Shown: positions 1,832-10,200 of the stretch, piece after piece | How the letters are laid out: every line of letters begins with the position of its first letter | Position numbering within the stretch: the stretch's first letter is position 1 | Assembly (NCBI GenBank): GCA_023134875.1 | Contig: JAGLUH010000018.1 | Span: 1 to 17,653, forward strand | Origin: Candidatus Zixiibacteriota bacterium | GTDB taxonomy: Bacteria > Zixibacteria > MSB-5A5 > CAIYYT01 | Direction of reading: 5' to 3' | Length of the DNA stretch: 17,653 nt | Program-made: the position numbers and the translations under genes | The notes under the pieces: generated by a model | Databases searched by the model: none | The model's input: only the letters and a program-made list of their open reading frames with translations | Told to the model about the DNA's origin: nothing

Positions 1832-2365
1832 CTAACGGCCTCCATAGTATTTATCCAAATGCCACTTGAGGGGATTATTGACGATATAATTGCGGATATC
1901 AGTAAGGTCGTTTTCGTTGCGAATGATGTGTTCATAGTAACCGCGCTGCCAAATGCGTCTTCCTGGTGTGCCACTGATGCGATTGATTCGTCTGGTGACC
2001 GCTGATTTGAACGCACGAACGATCGAGGGAAGTGAGCCTGACAACGTTCTGCCAAATTGCTCGATCGTAGGGGCACGGCGTGCCGTGCCCGCAGTCTTCC
2101 ATAGACCTATGACACCGTGGAAATGGTTTGGCATTACTACAAACACGTCCAAATCGACATTGGCACGCAGGCTCCCCGTTTTCAGCCATTCTGTTTCCAC
2201 AATCAAACCATGATCATTCATTATCATCATGTTATCAATCACAGTGCCCAAAAGGGGCGTTTTGTTCACAGTACAGATAGTGATGAAGTAGGCACCATCC
2301 TGTGAGTAGTCATGACCTTTCAGGCGCAGCGATTTCCTCTGTCGATAATTCGGTGCTTCTGTCAC
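1832..2365 (-). CDS. REP-associated tyrosine transposase (RAYT, Y1/HUH family)
   Basis: The protein (177 residues from the start proposed here) belongs to the TnpA-REP / IS200-like Y1 family. It shows KSLRLKGHDYSQDGAYFITI, the metal-binding HUH motif in VMPNHFHGVI (His81 and His83), and near the C-terminus WQRGYYEHIIRNENDL, which holds the candidate nucleophilic tyrosine (Tyr143 or Tyr144). It then ends NYIVNNPLKW, typical of this family. Such enzymes cut and join single-stranded DNA at REP hairpins. The frame is open upstream to a GTG at 2446 that lies inside a REP hairpin. I prefer the GTG at 2365 because homologues begin close to the EAPNYRQRKSLRL segment and the extra residues are encoded mostly by REP sequence. 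The ribosome binding site is weak in either case. Residues from about Gly93 to Thr100 are encoded by an internal REP copy. No truncation or frameshift is seen, so it may be active. Confidence 0.8.
   Translation of the reverse strand: MTEAPNYRQRKSLRLKGHDYSQDGAYFITICTVNKTPLLGTVIDNMMIMNDHGLIVETEWLKTGSLRANVDLDVFVVMPNHFHGVIGLWKTAGTARRAPTIEQFGRTLSGSLPSIVRAFKSAVTRRINRISGTPGRRIWQRGYYEHIIRNENDLTDIRNYIVNNPLKWHLDKYYGGR
2067..2090 (+). repeat. REP palindrome copy 3, inside the transposase gene
   Basis: GTAG (2067-2070) followed by a perfect 9-base stem GGGCACGGC with two central bases (2071-2090). It is in frame with the transposase on the opposite strand and encodes part of the segment GTARRAPT between the HUH motif and the tyrosine helix. 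Inner stem bases differ from copies 1 and 2 but remain paired. Confidence 0.8.
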
Positions 2366-2381
2366 TATTCGATCACCACGT

Positions 2382-2405
2382 GTAGAGGCGCAGCGGGCTG
2401 CGCCC
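2382..2405 (+). repeat. REP palindrome copy 4
   Basis: GTAG (2382-2385), then stem GGCGCAGC with two central bases and GCTGCGCC (2387-2404). The expected outermost pair is broken by A2386. It lies just upstream of the proposed transposase start and forms an inverted pair with copy 2, with a 30-base linker. Confidence 0.75.
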
Positions 2406-2434
2406 TCATATGTGACGTTGTACTCCAGCAAATT

Positions 2435-2459
2435 CGGGCAGAGCACGCTCTGCCCCTAC
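2435..2459 (-). repeat. REP palindrome copy 2
   Basis: Identical over 25 bases to copy 1 and in the same orientation: palindrome at 2436-2455, and GTAG on the minus strand at 2456-2459. It lies 48 bases downstream of the hutU stop. With copy 4 it makes a BIME-like inverted pair. Confidence 0.85.
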
Positions 2460-2507: not shown

Positions 2508-4163
2508 CTACTCCAGCATTGGGATTTTGATATTGTGCTGGCGGGCGCAGATTTTGGCCTGGTCGTAGCCGGCGTCGACGTGGCGCATGATGCCGCTGCC
2601 GGGGTCATTGGCAAGAACCCGCGACAGGCGTTTGGCCATCGCCTCGCTGCCGTCACAGACTACCACCATACCGGCATGAATCGCCAGACCCATACCGACA
2701 CCGCCACCATGATGGATACTGACCCAAGAGGCGCCGGAAACGGCGTTCAACAAGCCGTTTAAGAGCGGCCAGTCGGCGACGGCGTCAGAACCATCCTTCA
2801 TCGCCTCGGTCTCACGATAGGGTGACGCCACCGAGCCGCAGTCGAGATGGTCACGGCCGATTACTATGGGCTGCGATATCCGACCAGACTTGACCAGGTC
2901 GTTGATGATGAGGCCGAACTTCTCACGTTCGCCGTAGCCCAGCCAGCAGATTCGTGAGGGCAGTCCCTGGAAGGCGACTTTCTCCGAGGCCATATTGATC
3001 CAGTGAACTAGATGTTCATCGTAGGCGAATTCCTTCTTGATGACTTCATCAGTGACGGCGATATCCTTCGGGTCGCCGGAGAGCGCCGCCCAGCGAAAGG
3101 GGCCTTTGCCTTCGCAGAAGAGGGGACGGATATAAGCCGGTACGAAACCGGGGAAGTCGAATGCGTTATCCAGACCATGTTTCTGCGCCTGGCCACGCAG
3201 GTTGTTGCCGTAATCGAACACAACCGCTCCGGCCTTTTGCAGATCAATCATCGCCTGGCAATGCTGAACCATCGCATCATAGGCACGGTGGATGTATTCG
3301 TCAGGATCAGATCGGCGCAACGCCAATGCCTCCTGATAGGAGATGCCGTTGGGTATGTAGCCATTTAGTTCATCGTGCGCTGAGGTCTGATCGGTGACAA
3401 CATCGGGAATCACGCCCCGTCTGACCAGTTCAGGAAAAACATCCGCAGCGTTGGCTACCAGGCCGATCGACAACGGTTCCTTTTTAGCTTTGGCTTCGTC
3501 GACCCATTTCAATGCTTCATCAAGGAAATCGGTCTTGCGGTCACAGTACTTCTTATCCAGACGGCGGTCGATGCGCACCTCATCCACCTCGACGACAAGT
3601 ATCACGCCGCCCGCCATAGTCGCCGCCAACGGCTGGGCGCCGCCCATACCACCCATGCCGCCGGTAAGGATAAACTTGCCGGCCAGATCGCCGCCGAAAT
3701 GCTTCCTAGCGCAGGCGACGAAGGTCTCGTAAGTTCCCTGCAGGATACCCTGGGTACCGATATATATCCAGGAACCGGCGGTCATCTGCCCGAACATAAT
3801 CAACCCCAGCTTGTCTAGTTCGCGGAAATGCTCCCAGGTCGCCCACCTGGGCACCAGGTTGGAATTGGCGATCAACACCCGCGGGGCGTATTCGTGCGTT
3901 CTGAATATCCCCACCGGTTTCCCCGATTGCACCAGCAGGGTCTCATCGTTTTCCAGGCCCTTCAAACTACTGACAATCGCGTGATAGCATTCCCAGTTGC
4001 GAGCTGCCTTGCCGCTGCCGCCATAGACGACCAGGTTGTCAGGGTCTTCGGCGACGGCCGGATCGAGGTTGTTATTGAGCATTCGCATGGCCGCCTCCTG
4101 CGCCCAACCTTTGCAGACCAGCGGCGTGTGCAGCGTGTTCGCGTGAGCTTTCTTCTCCATCAT
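2508..4163 (-). CDS. hutU: Urocanate hydratase (urocanase)
   Basis: HutU converts urocanate to imidazolone propionate, the second step of histidine degradation, in the cytosol, using tightly bound NAD+ as an electrophile. The 551 residues match the family's full length. Visible hallmarks are the early [13 protein letters not shown], the Gly-rich NAD-binding segment [11 protein letters not shown] (168-178), the active-site cysteine in [11 protein letters not shown] (Cys406, equivalent to the catalytic cysteine near 410 of the Pseudomonas enzyme), [17 protein letters not shown], and HHGGGVGMG. Two ATGs lie in tandem (4163 and 4160). GGAGG is only two bases from the first and five from the second, so 4160 may be the true start. 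It has its own strong promoter and no hutH, hutI or hutG beside it; those genes must be elsewhere for the pathway to work. The call is very secure. Confidence 0.98.
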
Positions 4164-4634: not shown

Positions 4635-4676
4635 GGTCGGCAAAGTTGTGTGATCTATGCCATCGCTTTGCCGACC
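4635..4676 (-). terminator. purL terminator, stem includes the last purL codons
   Basis: A perfect 11-base stem, GGTCGGCAAAG (minus strand, 4666-4676) with CTTTGCCGACC (4635-4645), encloses a 20-base loop that contains the purL stop codon. On the minus strand it is followed by a T-rich tail. The long loop is unusual, but the stem is strong. Confidence 0.6.
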
Positions 4677-6874
4677 GACTCAAAATAGAGATCGGCCAGT
4701 TCTGAAACGGGGATGTTGATATCCTCGTTTATCAATAACCGTTTGCCGACAACGAGACCGATTACCGTCAGTGGGGTGTCCTGCGCTCGCGCCAGTTCTA
4801 CGATGGTTTTCTTATTTCGCGGATCGGTGGATAGAATAACACGAGATTGGGATTCACCGAAATAGAGCGCATCGCGGCGCACGTTCGATTCCAGATTGAG
4901 ACGGGCACCGATCAGGTTCTCTCGATCAGTGATGCAGCATTCGGCCAGAGCAACCATCAGACCCCCCTCAGAGATATCATGCGCCGACTTGACCAGCCCT
5001 TTCCCGATCGATTCCAGGATAAACGTTTGCAGGTAGCGCTCAAAGGCGAGATCAATCGCCGGTGCATCACCAGTCACCAGGCCATGAATCTCCTTGAGAT
5101 ATTCGGAGCCGCCCAACTCATCAGTGCTGTTTCCCGCCAGCAGGATGATGTCCCCTTCATCTTTGAAGTGCTGCGTGGTGATGTGGTCAACATCGTCGAT
5201 GATTCCCAGCATACCGATAGTCGGTGTCGGGTAAACGGCGTGGTCTGGGTCTTCGTTATAGAATGAGACATTGCCGCCCGTTACGGGTGTTTCCAGAACG
5301 CGACAGGCTTCGCCCATACCGGCGACCGCCTCGGCAAAGAGGTAGTACATCTCCGGCTTGTAGGGGTTGCCGAAATTCAGGCAGTTAGTGATCGCTACCG
5401 GCCGTGCGCCGGAACAGGCAACATTGCGCGCCGCTTCGCAGACGGCAATCCGGGCGCCAACTCGCGGGTTCAGATGGCAATAGCGGCCGTTGCAGTCGGT
5501 GGCGAGCGCCAGCGCTTTGCTACTCTTGCGAATACGCATCACCGCCGCATCCGAACCGGGACCGACAGCGGTGTTGGTGCGCACCATCGAGTCGTACTGA
5601 TCATATACCCATCTTTTTGAGGCGATATTATGATTGGCCAGCAGGCGTTTCAGTATATCCTGATAACCGCCAGGCTCCGGCAGGGAACTGAAATCATACG
5701 ATTGCACTTTATCCAGATAAGCAGGCCGCCTTTGTTCACGGGTATAGACCGGCGCGCCGCCACCCAGTACCAGTACGTCAGAGGGTATGTCGGAAACAAC
5801 CTTGCCATCTTTCCTGACGACAAACCGCTTACTGTCGGTAACCTGACCGATGGTGACACAGTTGAGGTCCCACTTGCGGCAAATCTCCCTGATACGCTCC
5901 TCGGTTTCCGGTCGACCCACCATCAACATCCGCTCCTGCGATTCGGAGAGCATGATTTCATAAGCGGTCATCTTTTCTTCACGCACCGGCACCAGGTCAA
6001 GATCAATATCGATACCGCTTTCCCCGCGTGCCGACATCTCCGAACTGCAACAGGTAATGCCGGCGGCGCCCATGTCCTGCACGCCGACAATCAGGTCTTC
6101 CCTGATGATTTCGAGAGTCGCTTCCAGCAGCAGCTTTTCCATGAAGGGATTGCCGATCTGCACCGAGGGACGCTTGGCTTCCGATTTTTCGCTGATTTCC
6201 TCCGAGGCAAAAGTGGCGCCGTGAATACCGTCGCGGCCGGTGGAGGAACCGATGATCATTACCGGATTGCCCACCCCCTGAGCGATTGCGGAAGCCATCC
6301 GGTCAACTTTGCAGATACCGACCGCCATCGCATTGACCAGCGGATTGCCGATGTAGCACTCTTCAAAATAGACCTCACCGCCAACCGTCGGTACACCGAA
6401 AGAATTGCCGTAATCACCAATGCCGCGCACGGCGCCGTCAAACAGGTAGCGGGGTCGCGTCAGGGTCAAAGGCCCGAAACGAAGCGAGTTTAGGGCGGCG
6501 ATCGGACGGGCGCCCATGCAGAAAATATCACGCAGGATGCCACCGACACCGGTAGCCGCCGCCTGGTAAGGCTCGACCGCGGTCGGATGGTTGTGCGATT
6601 CGATCTTGAAAACTACCGCCATACCATCGCCGATATCAACCGCGCCGGCGTTTTCCTCGCCCGCCTCAGTCAGGAGCGCCTTGCCTTCACGGGGCAGGGT
6701 TTTTAGCAGCTCAATCGAGTTCTTGTAGGAACAGTGCTCCGACCACATCACCGAGAAAACACCCAGTTCGGTGAATGTGGGCTCCCGACCAAGTATCTCT
6801 TTTATTCTGTGGTATTCTTCATCAGACAAGCCGTGTTCGGCTACCAGTTCCGGTGTGATCTTGGGTTCCGCCAT
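4655..6874 (-). CDS. purL: Phosphoribosylformylglycinamidine synthase subunit PurL
   Basis: PurL is the synthetase subunit of FGAM synthase in step four of purine synthesis. It uses ATP and ammonia (from PurQ, with PurS as bridge) to convert FGAR to FGAM in the cytosol. The 739 residues match the small stand-alone form, not the 1,300-residue fused enzyme of enterobacteria. Seen in order are the N-terminal [19 protein letters not shown] and [12 protein letters not shown], then [50 protein letters not shown], and in the second half [14 protein letters not shown] and the AHDISEGGL motif of the AIRS/PurM fold. The start is set by GGAGG four bases ahead of ATG. PurS and PurQ are not in the window. 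A long structured leader with its own promoter and terminator lies upstream and probably controls it. Confidence 0.97.
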
Positions 6875-6974
6875 CCGACCTCCGTGGTTAGGGCTTGAAG
6901 GTAGGGCTACAGGTAGTTAAAGGCAAATGAAAACGGCGCCCCCAAATAGCAGTAAACCGATTCGACTGTAAGGA

Positions 6975-7142
6975 TTAAAAGAAAGCCGGGAGGTTCGGCT
7001 TTCGATTTGTTAAGTTGTCGATCTTCCCTTCCGATGGGAAGATTAAGAATTAACTACAGTGGTTATCTGTCCGACTGTTTGCCGGACATGACTTAACCTG
7101 ACCGGGAACAACCGGCCATTATTTCCGACCTCCCGACTGCTG
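6975..7142 (-). ncRNA. Structured purL leader RNA: candidate attenuator/riboswitch or small RNA
   Basis: Between a good promoter and a good terminator, 100 bases ahead of purL, the minus-strand RNA can form three hairpins. These are 7112-7117 with 7100-7105 (6 pairs), 7094-7098 with 7061-7065 enclosing 7083-7088 with 7068-7073, and 7050-7054 with 7009-7013 enclosing 7036-7043 with 7021-7028 (8 pairs). A 13-pair helix with one bulge can join the RNA's 5' end (7125-7137) to 6985-6998, enclosing all three hairpins. That strand is also the 5' arm and loop of the terminator, so helix and terminator exclude each other. This is the layout of a transcriptional attenuator. I could not match it to purine, ZTP, PRPP, THF, glycine, SAM, TPP, cobalamin or T-box consensus elements, nor to SRP RNA. 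No clear second promoter is seen between it and purL. Confidence 0.6.
6977..7003 (-). terminator. Intrinsic terminator of the purL leader
   Basis: On the minus strand an 8-base perfect stem GAAAGCCG/CGGCTTTC (7003-6996 with 6988-6981) with a 7-base loop is followed directly by TTTT. It stops leader RNA before purL unless the stem is disrupted by the competing upstream helix. Confidence 0.7.
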
Positions 7143-7148
7143 TAAATC

Positions 7149-7176
7149 AGCATAGAATCTGAAAGGATGTTGTCAA
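7149..7176 (-). promoter_or_regulatory. Promoter of the purL leader
   Basis: On the minus strand a perfect TTGACA (7171-7176), a 16-base spacer and TATGCT (7149-7154) predict a start near 7142. It lies back to back with the rpmB promoter. Confidence 0.65.
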
Positions 7177-7215
7177 GCAGTAAGTTCGGGAGATCGAAAA
7201 ATCGAGAGAAAATGC

Positions 7216-7243
7216 TTGCTTTTATTAGATGGGAGAGTATAAT
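7216..7243 (+). promoter_or_regulatory. rpmB promoter
   Basis: TTGCTT (7216-7221), a 16-base spacer and a perfect TATAAT (7238-7243). Transcription would start near 7250, giving a short leader of about 25 bases that carries GGAGG at 7263-7267. Confidence 0.65.
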
Positions 7244-7274
7244 TTAAGTCTTGATGTTTTTTGGAGGATAGCTC

Positions 7275-7466
7275 GTGTCTAAAGTTTGCGAAATCTGCGG
7301 TAAGAAACCAATGTTCGGCAGCAATGTCTCTCATGCTCATAATGTCACCAAGAGGCGCTTCAATCCCAACCTGCAAACGGTACGGGCACGGGTGGACGGC
7401 AAGGTTAAGAAAATGACCGTCTGTACCCGCTGCCTCAAGGCCGGCAAGGTCGAGAAGGTTCATTAG
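7275..7466 (+). CDS. rpmB: 50S ribosomal protein L28
   Basis: This 63-residue protein of the large ribosomal subunit is recognised by [32 protein letters not shown] and the C-terminal [13 protein letters not shown]. Two Cys-x-x-Cys pairs (Cys5/Cys8 and Cys50/Cys53) make it the zinc-ribbon (C+) form. Many bacteria also keep a zinc-free paralogue for zinc starvation; none is in this window. The start codon is GTG, set by GGAGG seven bases upstream and by the N-terminal alignment with the family. It has its own consensus promoter and is monocistronic, as L28 often is outside the rpmB-rpmG pair. Confidence 0.96.
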
Positions 7467-7590: not shown

Positions 7591-8292
7591 TTATCGTCGT
7601 GCAAAGCTGAGGTTGTTATCGTAGTTGCGGCGCTGCTTATTAGCCATTACATGAGCCAGCCGCAACGGTTCGGGGAGACGATAACCACGCAGCAGATCGA
7701 TCACGGTTCGCACCGCAGTTTCGATATCTATCTTGTGACCGGGGGAAACATAGAGAGGTTTTACATTCTGACGGGATCGCACGGCGCATCCCACTTCTCG
7801 GTTACCGTTATGGATCGGTGTCGTATCGCCCACTTCGTTACCCAGCTCTCCCGCCTCACCACAGAGAAGCTTCTTGGCGCAACCGATAGACGGCATATCG
7901 AGAAGCAGGCCGAGGTGTGAAGCCATACCGATTCCTTTGGGATGGCCGATGCCGTGCGCGTCGAAAATAAAACAATCGGGCACAATCTTCAGCCGCGCCA
8001 GCGCCTTGACCAGTACCGGTCCCTCGCGGAAATAGAAGTAACCGGGCATAAAGGGGAAGGTGACATTCGCCTGCGCCCGCACCTTCTCCACCAGGTCCAT
8101 CTCCGGAACCTTAAGCACCACCACAGTGGCAAAAGCCATGTTGTCTTTCTTGGAATAGGCGACATCGGCGCCACCCACCAGCTTGAAATCAGTTCGTTCC
8201 GGCTTGAGCGAAATCAGGCTGCGGAAACGATCCTGAATCTTGTCCGCTTCACGAGGGTCGTCTGTCCATTGATGTAACCTGGAGAATCTCAT
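7591..8292 (-). CDS. nfi: Endonuclease V (deoxyinosine 3' endonuclease)
   Basis: This repair enzyme nicks DNA one base 3' of deoxyinosine, starting removal of deaminated adenine. The 233-residue protein shows the family's motifs in order: GGADVAYS with Asp43, FPFMPGYFYFREGP with Glu90, FDAHGIGHPKGIGMASHLG with Asp111, IGCAKKLLCG, YVSPGHKIDIETA, and YRLPEPLRLAH with His214. These four residues correspond to the metal-binding and catalytic set of the E. coli enzyme (Asp35, Glu89, Asp110, His214). The wedge motif usually written PYIP is PFMP here, a conservative change. The ribosome binding site AGAGGT is modest. It is convergent with rpmB and not part of an operon. Confidence 0.96.
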   Translation of the reverse strand: MRFSRLHQWTDDPREADKIQDRFRSLISLKPERTDFKLVGGADVAYSKKDNMAFATVVVLKVPEMDLVEKVRAQANVTFPFMPGYFYFREGPVLVKALARLKIVPDCFIFDAHGIGHPKGIGMASHLGLLLDMPSIGCAKKLLCGEAGELGNEVGDTTPIHNGNREVGCAVRSRQNVKPLYVSPGHKIDIETAVRTVIDLLRGYRLPEPLRLAHVMANKQRRNYDNNLSFARR

Positions 8293-8664: not shown

Positions 8665-10200
8665 TTGCCATACCGAGCCGGCAGAGTGATTATAAGCGGC
8701 AGTCTTGGCAACATTTTCAAGACAAGGAACAATCGGGTTATAGACAGTACCCTGCTTGGTTTCGTTCTCTACCTGGTGATTATTCTAGCAGTCGGTATAA
8801 TCACCCTACGCCTGACCAGGACGCTGTCCGATTACCTGTTGGCCGGCAGACGACTTGGTATCTGGGTGGTGACTTTCTCGGAACGAGCTTCCGGAGAGTC
8901 CGCCTGGCTATTGATCGGCCTGCCCGGGATGGCACTGGTGGGGGGATTTTCCGCCTTCTGGACTGCTATCGGCTGCATCGGCGGCATTCTTTTTTCCTGG
9001 CTGGTGATCGCCAAAAAACTACGGTTGCTGACCGAAAAATACAACGCGCTCACCATTCCTAGTTTCTTCGAGGCCCGCCTGGCCGACAGTACGCACCTGG
9101 TGCGGATAATCGCTACCGTAATTATCATCTTCTTTTTCACCGCTTATGTCGCCGCCCAGTTTTTGGCCGCCGGTAAAGTGCTGAATATCACTTTCGGTCT
9201 TTCTCCCCTGGTCGGTATGCTGATCGGGGCGCTGATAATCGTCGCCTACACGATCATGGGCGGTTTCTTCGCCGTCGCCTGGACTGATCTCTTTCAGGGT
9301 ATCATCATGATTTTTACCCTGGTGGCACTGCCGTTGGTGATGATCGTGGAACTGGGGGGATTGGGCGAAATGGCATCGGTTATCGGCGGGGTCGATCCGT
9401 TACAGGTCAGCATGACTGAGGGCAAAACCGGCTGGCAGGCGTTGGCGCTGGTTCTTGGCGGTTTGGGAGTCGGGCTTGGCTACATGGGACAGCCGCATCT
9501 GGTGACCAGGTTTATGTCGATCAAAAACCCCGATGATCTGCGTAAGGGAACGGTAATAGCAGGACTTTGGGCGGTCTGCGGTTTTTTCGGGGCTACTCTG
9601 ATCGGGCTGGCGGCCATCGCGTATTTTAAGGGTACGATTCTTCTCGGGCCGCTGGGACTGACTGATGCCGAACAAGTCATGCCCTACCTGGTGGAGAGAT
9701 TCTTCCCCGCCTGGCTGGCGGGTATTCTGATCTCCGGCGCTATCGCGGCAATGATGTCGACCGCCGACAGCCAGTTGGTGGTTTCCACCTCGGCGGTCTC
9801 GGAGGATATCTACCACCAGTTAATAAACAAGCATGCCGACCAGAGAACGCTGTTGTTGATCTCCCGCGTGACCACGCTGGTGATCGGCATTGTCGCCTTT
9901 ATCCTGGCACTCTCCGCCAAACAACTGGTTTACTGGATGGTTCTCTTTGCCTGGGCGGGCCTTGGTTCCGCTTTCGGACCGCCGCTACTACTTTCCCTCT
10001 GGTGGAAAAAGACCACTAAAGCGGGTGTGGCCGCCGGTATGGTAACCGGCACGGTAGTCGTGATCGTCTGGTACTTCGTGCCCGTCCTGAAAAGCAGCCT
10101 CTACGAGATAATCCCCGGCTTCTTTGCCTCGCTGCTGGCGGTAATAGTGGTAAGCCTCCTGACTGATGAGCCGAGGTCAACTTCTCCCGCCTTGCGGTAG
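8665..10200 (+). CDS. putP: Sodium:solute symporter, PutP (sodium/proline) type
   Basis: An inner-membrane secondary transporter of the SSS family with about 13 hydrophobic helices. The second helix begins SERASGESAWLLIGLPG, the PutP signature region, with the conserved serine equivalent to E. coli Ser57 but Gly where E. coli has Asp55. The sodium-site segment AIAAMMSTADSQLVVSTSAVSEDIY keeps the Ser-Thr pair equivalent to Ser340/Thr341. Also seen are GGFFAVAWTDLFQGIIM and GYMGQPHLVTRFMS. Proline with sodium is the likeliest cargo, though close relatives carry other organic acids. At 511 residues from a TTG it is slightly longer than the 502-residue E. coli protein. The family normally starts near IDSTLLGFVLYL, and no ATG exists there: TTG 8665 and GTG 8686 are the only upstream options and neither has a well-placed ribosome binding site. 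The start is unresolved. Confidence 0.85.
   Translation: MPYRAGRVIISGSLGNIFKTRNNRVIDSTLLGFVLYLVIILAVGIITLRLTRTLSDYLLAGRRLGIWVVTFSERASGESAWLLIGLPGMALVGGFSAFWTAIGCIGGILFSWLVIAKKLRLLTEKYNALTIPSFFEARLADSTHLVRIIATVIIIFFFTAYVAAQFLAAGKVLNITFGLSPLVGMLIGALIIVAYTIMGGFFAVAWTDLFQGIIMIFTLVALPLVMIVELGGLGEMASVIGGVDPLQVSMTEGKTGWQALALVLGGLGVGLGYMGQPHLVTRFMSIKNPDDLRKGTVIAGLWAVCGFFGATLIGLAAIAYFKGTILLGPLGLTDAEQVMPYLVERFFPAWLAGILISGAIAAMMSTADSQLVVSTSAVSEDIYHQLINKHADQRTLLLISRVTTLVIGIVAFILALSAKQLVYWMVLFAWAGLGSAFGPPLLLSLWWKKTTKAGVAAGMVTGTVVVIVWYFVPVLKSSLYEIIPGFFASLLAVIVVSLLTDEPRSTSPALR

What the first reader, a model, noticed from the sequence alone, without database searches (positions are those of the whole stretch)
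6975..7142. Unrecognised structured leader RNA ahead of purL with mutually exclusive helix and terminator
Seen directly: TTGACA/TATGCT promoter, about 168 bases of RNA able to fold into three hairpins, and an intrinsic terminator. A 13-pair helix (7125-7137 with 6985-6998, one bulge, one G-U) encloses the three hairpins and uses the terminator's 5' arm and loop. That is the logic of a transcription attenuator or riboswitch in which formation of the enclosing helix allows purL expression. It does not fit the consensus of the purine, ZTP, PRPP, THF, glycine, SAM, TPP, cobalamin or T-box elements as I know them. A ligand from purine, one-carbon or glycine metabolism would make sense next to purL; that is inference.
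Basis: partly seen in the sequence, partly recalled or inferred. Interest (0 to 1): 0.75.

Follow-up and report, generated by a model that had tools for sequence, protein, structure and literature searches.

The report
Stand-alone structured small RNA beside purL
A roughly 160-base folded RNA lies between the genes rpmB and purL in one family of uncultured bacteria; it is conserved and matches no catalogued RNA family, but it looks like its own small RNA gene rather than a switch controlling purL, and its job is unknown.

Summary
The structure is real. The minus-strand RNA folds at -68 kcal/mol (z -5.83), with a 14-pair enclosing helix P1 and three hairpins, and has no Rfam match. Relatives exist in three other genomes of the same family, each next to rpmB. 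A covariance model built without the window finds the window at 47.1 bits, E 5.1e-11. Seven of 28 counted pairs carry two-sided changes. A model of all four finds 4 of the 132 phylum genomes searched.

The leader/attenuator reading is not supported. P1 is conserved, but the competing hairpin has 8 pairs in the window, 4 in G001 and 3-4 in G003. P1 itself ends 0-2 bases before a U-tract in all three complete copies, so forming it should not prevent termination. In G001 the RNA and purL are 909 bases apart, with an opposite-strand ORF between them. purL has a promoter-like site of its own below the RNA, though a weak one in this family.

Best explanation: a stand-alone, intrinsically terminated, family-restricted small RNA of unknown target. 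Rivals: a true purL leader in some species, or a diverged 6S-like RNA.

The parts
7149..7176 (-). promoter-like site of the small RNA: TTGACA 7176-7171, 16-nt spacer, TATGCT 7154-7149
   Evidence: G003 (TTCACA-17-TATAAT) and G001 (TTGACA, weak -10) have sites at the same place; G002 scored poorly, though a TATTAT is there by eye
6977..7142 (-). the structured small RNA (about 160-166 nt; ends inferred from promoter and U-tract)
7125..7138 (-). 5' arm of enclosing helix P1
   Evidence: covariation
6984..6998 (-). 3' arm of enclosing helix P1 (bulge at 6995), followed directly by the U-tract
   Evidence: covariation
7099..7118 (-). hairpin P2 (core CCGG / 6-nt loop / CCGG), in the best conserved part of the RNA
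7061..7098 (-). hairpin P3 (base GGTT/AACC; body differs between relatives)
7009..7054 (-). hairpin P4; apical stem 7043-7036 with 7028-7021 and a seven-base loop A(U/A)(C/U)GGA(N) at 7035-7029
6981..7003 (-). local terminator hairpin that competes with P1 in the window; 3-4 pairs in relatives
6977..6983 (-). U-tract TTCTTTT after P1
6898..6926 (-). promoter-like site of purL, TTGCCT-17-TACCTT, 23 nt before the start codon
   Evidence: weak: score 8.7 against a class median of 20.1
4655..6874 (-). purL, phosphoribosylformylglycinamidine synthase subunit
7216..7243 (+). promoter-like site of rpmB, TTGCTT-16-TATAAT
   Evidence: read by eye in the sequence printed; not scored
7275..7466 (+). rpmB (ribosomal protein L28), divergent neighbour in the four genomes with the RNA

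Best explanation
The region is a stand-alone small-RNA gene, divergent from rpmB and ahead of purL. A sigma-70-type promoter starts an RNA of about 160-180 nt. Its 5' end pairs with its 3' end in a 12-14-pair helix (P1) that ends 0-2 bases before a U-tract, so P1 (or in the window first a local hairpin) ends transcription and then seals the RNA ends. Inside P1 three hairpins are presented; the P1-P2 linker, P2 and its junction with P3, and the seven-base GGA loop of P4, are the best conserved and the likeliest contact sites. purL is transcribed mainly from its own promoter further down. Shown by computation: conservation, covariation, position, U-tract. Inferred: transcript ends, independence from purL, action in trans. 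The target is not known.
For: Model R1, built from G003, G001 and G002 only, finds the window (47.1 bits, E 5.1e-11). 7 of 28 pairs show two-sided changes against a shuffle mean of 3.3 (3 of 500 reach it) and at most 2 when slid. P1 followed within 0-2 nt by a U-tract in 3 of 3 complete copies. Next to rpmB in 4 of 4 genomes with the RNA. In G001, 909 bases and an opposite-strand ORF separate it from purL on one contig. Promoter-like sites for purL below the RNA (joint p 0.003).
Against: In the window and G003 the RNA does lie 103 and 121 bases before purL on the same strand, and the purL promoter-like sites of this family score 5.2-8.7 against a class median of 20.1. In one search, without restricting position, 62, 137 and 194 of 2000 shuffles score as high; one search restricted the position after I had seen those sites, so its p-values are generous. 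The ORF in G001 has only its identical self in the protein database, no relative in G002-G004 and no family. Only three complete copies. No transcript data. G001's -10 and G002's -35 for the RNA are poor. The opposite strand folds about as well in G001 and better in G003 (-82.5 against -71.5).
Confidence: 0.7

Rival explanations
1. A purL leader (attenuator or riboswitch): the RNA senses a purine- or one-carbon-related ligand and part of the transcripts read through into purL.
For: Same strand, 103 and 121 bases before purL in the window and G003; in the window a local 8-pair terminator hairpin competes with P1; purL's own site in the window is weak.
Against: Decoupled from purL in G001; competing hairpin not conserved; P1 abuts the U-tract, so it should not antiterminate; P1 is predicted to win in the full RNA (pairing probability 0.78-1.0 over its 5' arm); no Rfam riboswitch.
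Confidence: 0.15
2. A strongly diverged 6S-type RNA that binds RNA polymerase.
For: Stand-alone, about 160-180 nt, long closing stem with terminator, fast-evolving; Rfam 6S is found in 0 of 132 genomes (strict filters) and 0 of 5 family genomes at E 10, although 6S is described as found in nearly all bacteria (PMC8414754, abstract start in the listing); cyanobacterial 6Sa/Yfr7 genes lie directly downstream of purK (PMC1242208, passages).
Against: No 6S score even at E 10. A conserved predicted hairpin (P2) occupies the 5' side where canonical 6S has an open central bulge; three side-by-side hairpins instead of one apical stem.
Confidence: 0.12
3. Chance structure or simple intergenic terminator with no function as an RNA.
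For: One family only (4 of 132 genomes); body of P3 differs between relatives.
Against: z -5.83, independent model hit, compensatory changes, a 40-nt stretch 88% identical between two genera.
Confidence: 0.03

Closest known systems
6S RNA (Rfam RF00013)
   Same: Stand-alone RNA of similar length with a closing stem; in cyanobacteria it neighbours a purine gene (PMC1242208, passages read)
   Different: No Rfam score; conserved predicted hairpin in place of the open 5' central bulge; three side-by-side hairpins rather than one apical arm
Purine, ZTP, PRPP and THF riboswitches (names recalled; any in Rfam 15 were covered by the scan)
   Same: Would sit ahead of purine genes with promoter and terminator
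   Different: No match at E up to 10; not kept next to purL in G001; no conserved antiterminator logic
Intrinsically terminated bacterial small RNAs in general (recalled)
   Same: Own promoter, structured body, terminal stem with U-tract
   Different: P1 joins the two ends of the RNA, so the terminal stem is a long-range helix; no match to a catalogued family

Membership tests
6S RNA | match to RF00013 covariance model | tested here: not met
   no match in window, 0 of 132 genomes (strict filters; control rings in 4 of 14), 0 of 5 at E 10 (control rings in 8 of 14, 4 over cut-off)
6S RNA | closing stem joining 5' and 3' ends | tested here: met
   P1 in 3 of 3 complete copies
6S RNA | large open 5' central bulge and single apical arm | tested here: not met
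   by prediction only: P2 hairpin in that strand, side-by-side hairpins; feature as described in PMC8414754 passages
6S RNA | RNA polymerase binding and product RNA synthesis | not testable with these tools
   needs biochemistry
cis-acting purL leader / riboswitch | kept directly ahead of the regulated gene | tested here: not met
   2 of 3 genomes where both are assembled (window, G003); G001 has 909 bases and an opposite-strand ORF between; G002 has no purL in its assembly
cis-acting purL leader / riboswitch | conserved choice between terminator and antiterminator | tested here: not met
   local hairpin 8, 4 and 3-4 pairs in window, G001, G003; P1 abuts the U-tract
cis-acting purL leader / riboswitch | ligand-dependent change | not testable with these tools
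   needs in-line probing or reporter
known Rfam riboswitch families | score above gathering cut-off | tested here: not met
   0 matches in the window; (6800-7350): only a microRNA model at E 6.4, elsewhere than the RNA
stand-alone small RNA | own promoter and terminator, location independent of the downstream gene | tested here: inconclusive
   sequence features present and decoupled from purL in 1 of 3 genomes with both; the transcript itself is not shown

The most novel reading that the evidence does not exclude
The RNA is the unrecognised polymerase-binding (6S-equivalent) RNA of a phylum in which the Rfam 6S model finds nothing, with a new four-helix form in place of the canonical rod and open bubble.
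Probability: 0.1. Interest if true: 0.7.

Novelty: new member of a known kind. Interest (0 to 1): 0.42.

Why it matters
It adds a covarying RNA family that the Rfam 15 scan did not recognise, in a lineage for which two literature searches, pairing the word Zixibacteria with riboswitch and with non-coding RNA, returned no paper (other spellings of the phylum were not tried). It also warns that an RNA ahead of a biosynthetic gene need not be its leader. If it proves to be the missing 6S equivalent, it would show how far that RNA can drift.

Tried and rejected
Plain BLASTN of the window RNA in 132 genomes gave only 19-28-base matches outside the window; homologues appeared only after reading purL upstream regions by eye and searching with the G003 copy. 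A 26-base match in the window's own genome (C467) lacks the P1 arms by eye: rejected. Weak R1 hits in G119, G035 and G025 (E 0.2-0.9) were read and show no enclosing helix with U-tract by eye; R2 was asked only to E 0.1 and lists none of them. R2 in 30 rpmB loci, 26 of them outside the family: nothing there below E 0.5 (48 of 58 genomes had an rpmB match). R2 in the 80 named purL loci: 3 matches, best E 0.89, taken as chance; these loci hold at most 3 kb before purL, not whole genomes. MAFFT alignment A2 shifts P1 of the window by a column, so pair counts use the model-fitted alignment A5, which leans towards its structure; P3 was left out of the count because A5 misplaces it in the window. 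G004 has no RNA hit, but neither purL nor rpmB was found in its assembly. A leader peptide (an ATG inside the window RNA) is not kept in relatives, by eye. A P2-loop/P4-loop contact (UCC with GGA) was noted by eye, not tested. Literature: no paper pairs purL, small RNA, rpmB and intergenic; the listings looked off topic by title and abstract start. Promoter model: trained on 27 loci outside the family (so their own scores are circular); one search used 25 of these 27, dropping L005 and L021, whose best sites lack a TTGA box.

Full report
WHAT WAS CHECKED. The fold is far better than shuffles (-68 against -43.5, sd 4.2, 0 of 200). P1 has 14 pairs (7125-7138 with 6984-6998) in the predicted best fold. 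No Rfam family matches at gathering level in the window; in 6800-7350 at E up to 10 only a microRNA model at 6.4 appears, outside the RNA.

WHERE IT COMES FROM. The window lies in a 77%-complete draft genome. The best purL matches in named genomes are Candidatus Zixiibacteriota at 65%, with Bacterium BMS3Abin03 at 63% close behind; this suggests, but does not prove, that phylum. purL and rpmB are identified by NCBIfam models above cut-off.

RELATIVES. Reading the regions before purL in 29 other loci showed a similar RNA in G003, same family. Searching with it found copies in G002 (cut by a contig end) and G001. G001's two matches are one locus: the contigs overlap by exactly 141 bases. A covariance model from these three, without the window, finds the window at 47.1 bits, E 5.1e-11, so homology does not rest on my eye alone. 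A model with all four finds 4 of the 132 phylum genomes searched, all in one family of five; in the fifth (G004) neither rpmB nor purL was found. Over 40 genomes the search uses stricter filters and loses weak matches; R1 missed the window itself that way. Absence elsewhere therefore means no close copy. In 80 named purL loci from other genomes the best match has E 0.89.

STRUCTURE. On the model-fitted alignment, 28 pairs of P1, P2 and P4 were counted: 90% of 90 cells pair, 7 pairs have changes on both sides (shuffle mean 3.3, reached by 3 of 500; at most 2 for slid versions), covariation score above all 500 shuffles; the number of further pair types is less telling (60 of 500 reach it). Only three copies are complete, and the alignment was fitted to most of this structure, so this is good but not overwhelming support. 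G003 and G001 fold with z -2.81 and -2.78 (2 and 1 of 200 shuffles as low). The opposite strand folds worse in the window, about equally in G001 and better in G003, so strand is assigned by promoter and U-tract, not by energy.

WHY NOT A purL SWITCH. In G001 the RNA and purL lie on one contig, 909 bases apart, with an opposite-strand 164-codon ORF between them that has a GAAGGAGGAAG sequence before its ATG. That ORF has no relative in G002-G004 and only its identical self in the protein database, on 14 contigs, so it may be a young gene or not a gene; the distance stands either way. Masking the P1 5' arm costs 8.9, 19.7 and 17.6 kcal/mol in window, G003 and G001, and that arm pairs with the 3' arm at probability 0.78-1.0. 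The competing local hairpin has 8 pairs in the window, 4 in G001 and 3-4 in G003. In all three, P1 is followed within 0-2 bases by the U-tract, the arrangement of a terminator, not of an antiterminator. In 25 of 27 class purL loci outside this family the best site before the gene has a TTGAC or TTGAT box 16-17 bases from a -10-like hexamer, a few of them with weak -10s. In the window, G003 and G001 weaker sites lie 23-28 bases before the start: 62, 137 and 194 of 2000 plain shuffles score as high over the whole region; with position limited to 18-50 bases before the start, p is 0.048, 0.026 and 0.044, jointly 0.003. The limit was set.

WHAT IT MOST LIKELY IS. A stand-alone small RNA next to rpmB. 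I put 0.70 on this, 0.15 on a purL leader, 0.12 on a diverged 6S, 0.03 on chance. The 6S idea rests on size, closing stem, no Rfam 6S match in the phylum genomes searched, and the purK neighbour of cyanobacterial 6S (PMC1242208, passages); it fails the bulge-and-arm layout described for 6S (PMC8414754, passages). The original 6S structure paper is not held.

LIMITS. No transcript data; no metagenome scan was available; outside the phylum the model was run only on 80 purL loci, of which at least two are from the phylum itself by title (the whole-genome tries failed on the handle). Target and function are unknown.

Noticed in passing
L122 1414-1554 and L119 1-141: The G001 assembly breaks inside the RNA: two contigs share exactly 141 bases there; the G002 contig also begins inside the RNA. 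This may reflect strain variation at the locus.
   Followed up: partly
L119 395-889 (minus): 164-aa ORF between the RNA and purL in G001, lipoprotein-like by eye, with no relative in three family genomes and no known family.
   Followed up: partly
G002 and G004 genomes: Only weak, distant matches to purL in these assemblies although they are given as 99% and 96% complete.
   Followed up: no
window 7029-7035: P4 loop keeps a GGA (AUCGGAA, AUUGGAG, AAUGGAU), and the P2 loop ends UC or UCC and could pair with it; a loop-loop contact is possible, untested.
   Followed up: no
window 1832-2446 (minus): ORF that looks like a REP-type transposase; label recalled, not searched.
   Followed up: no
window 2508-4163, 7591-8292, 8665-10200: Urocanase, endonuclease V and a sodium:solute symporter by Pfam.
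   Followed up: yes
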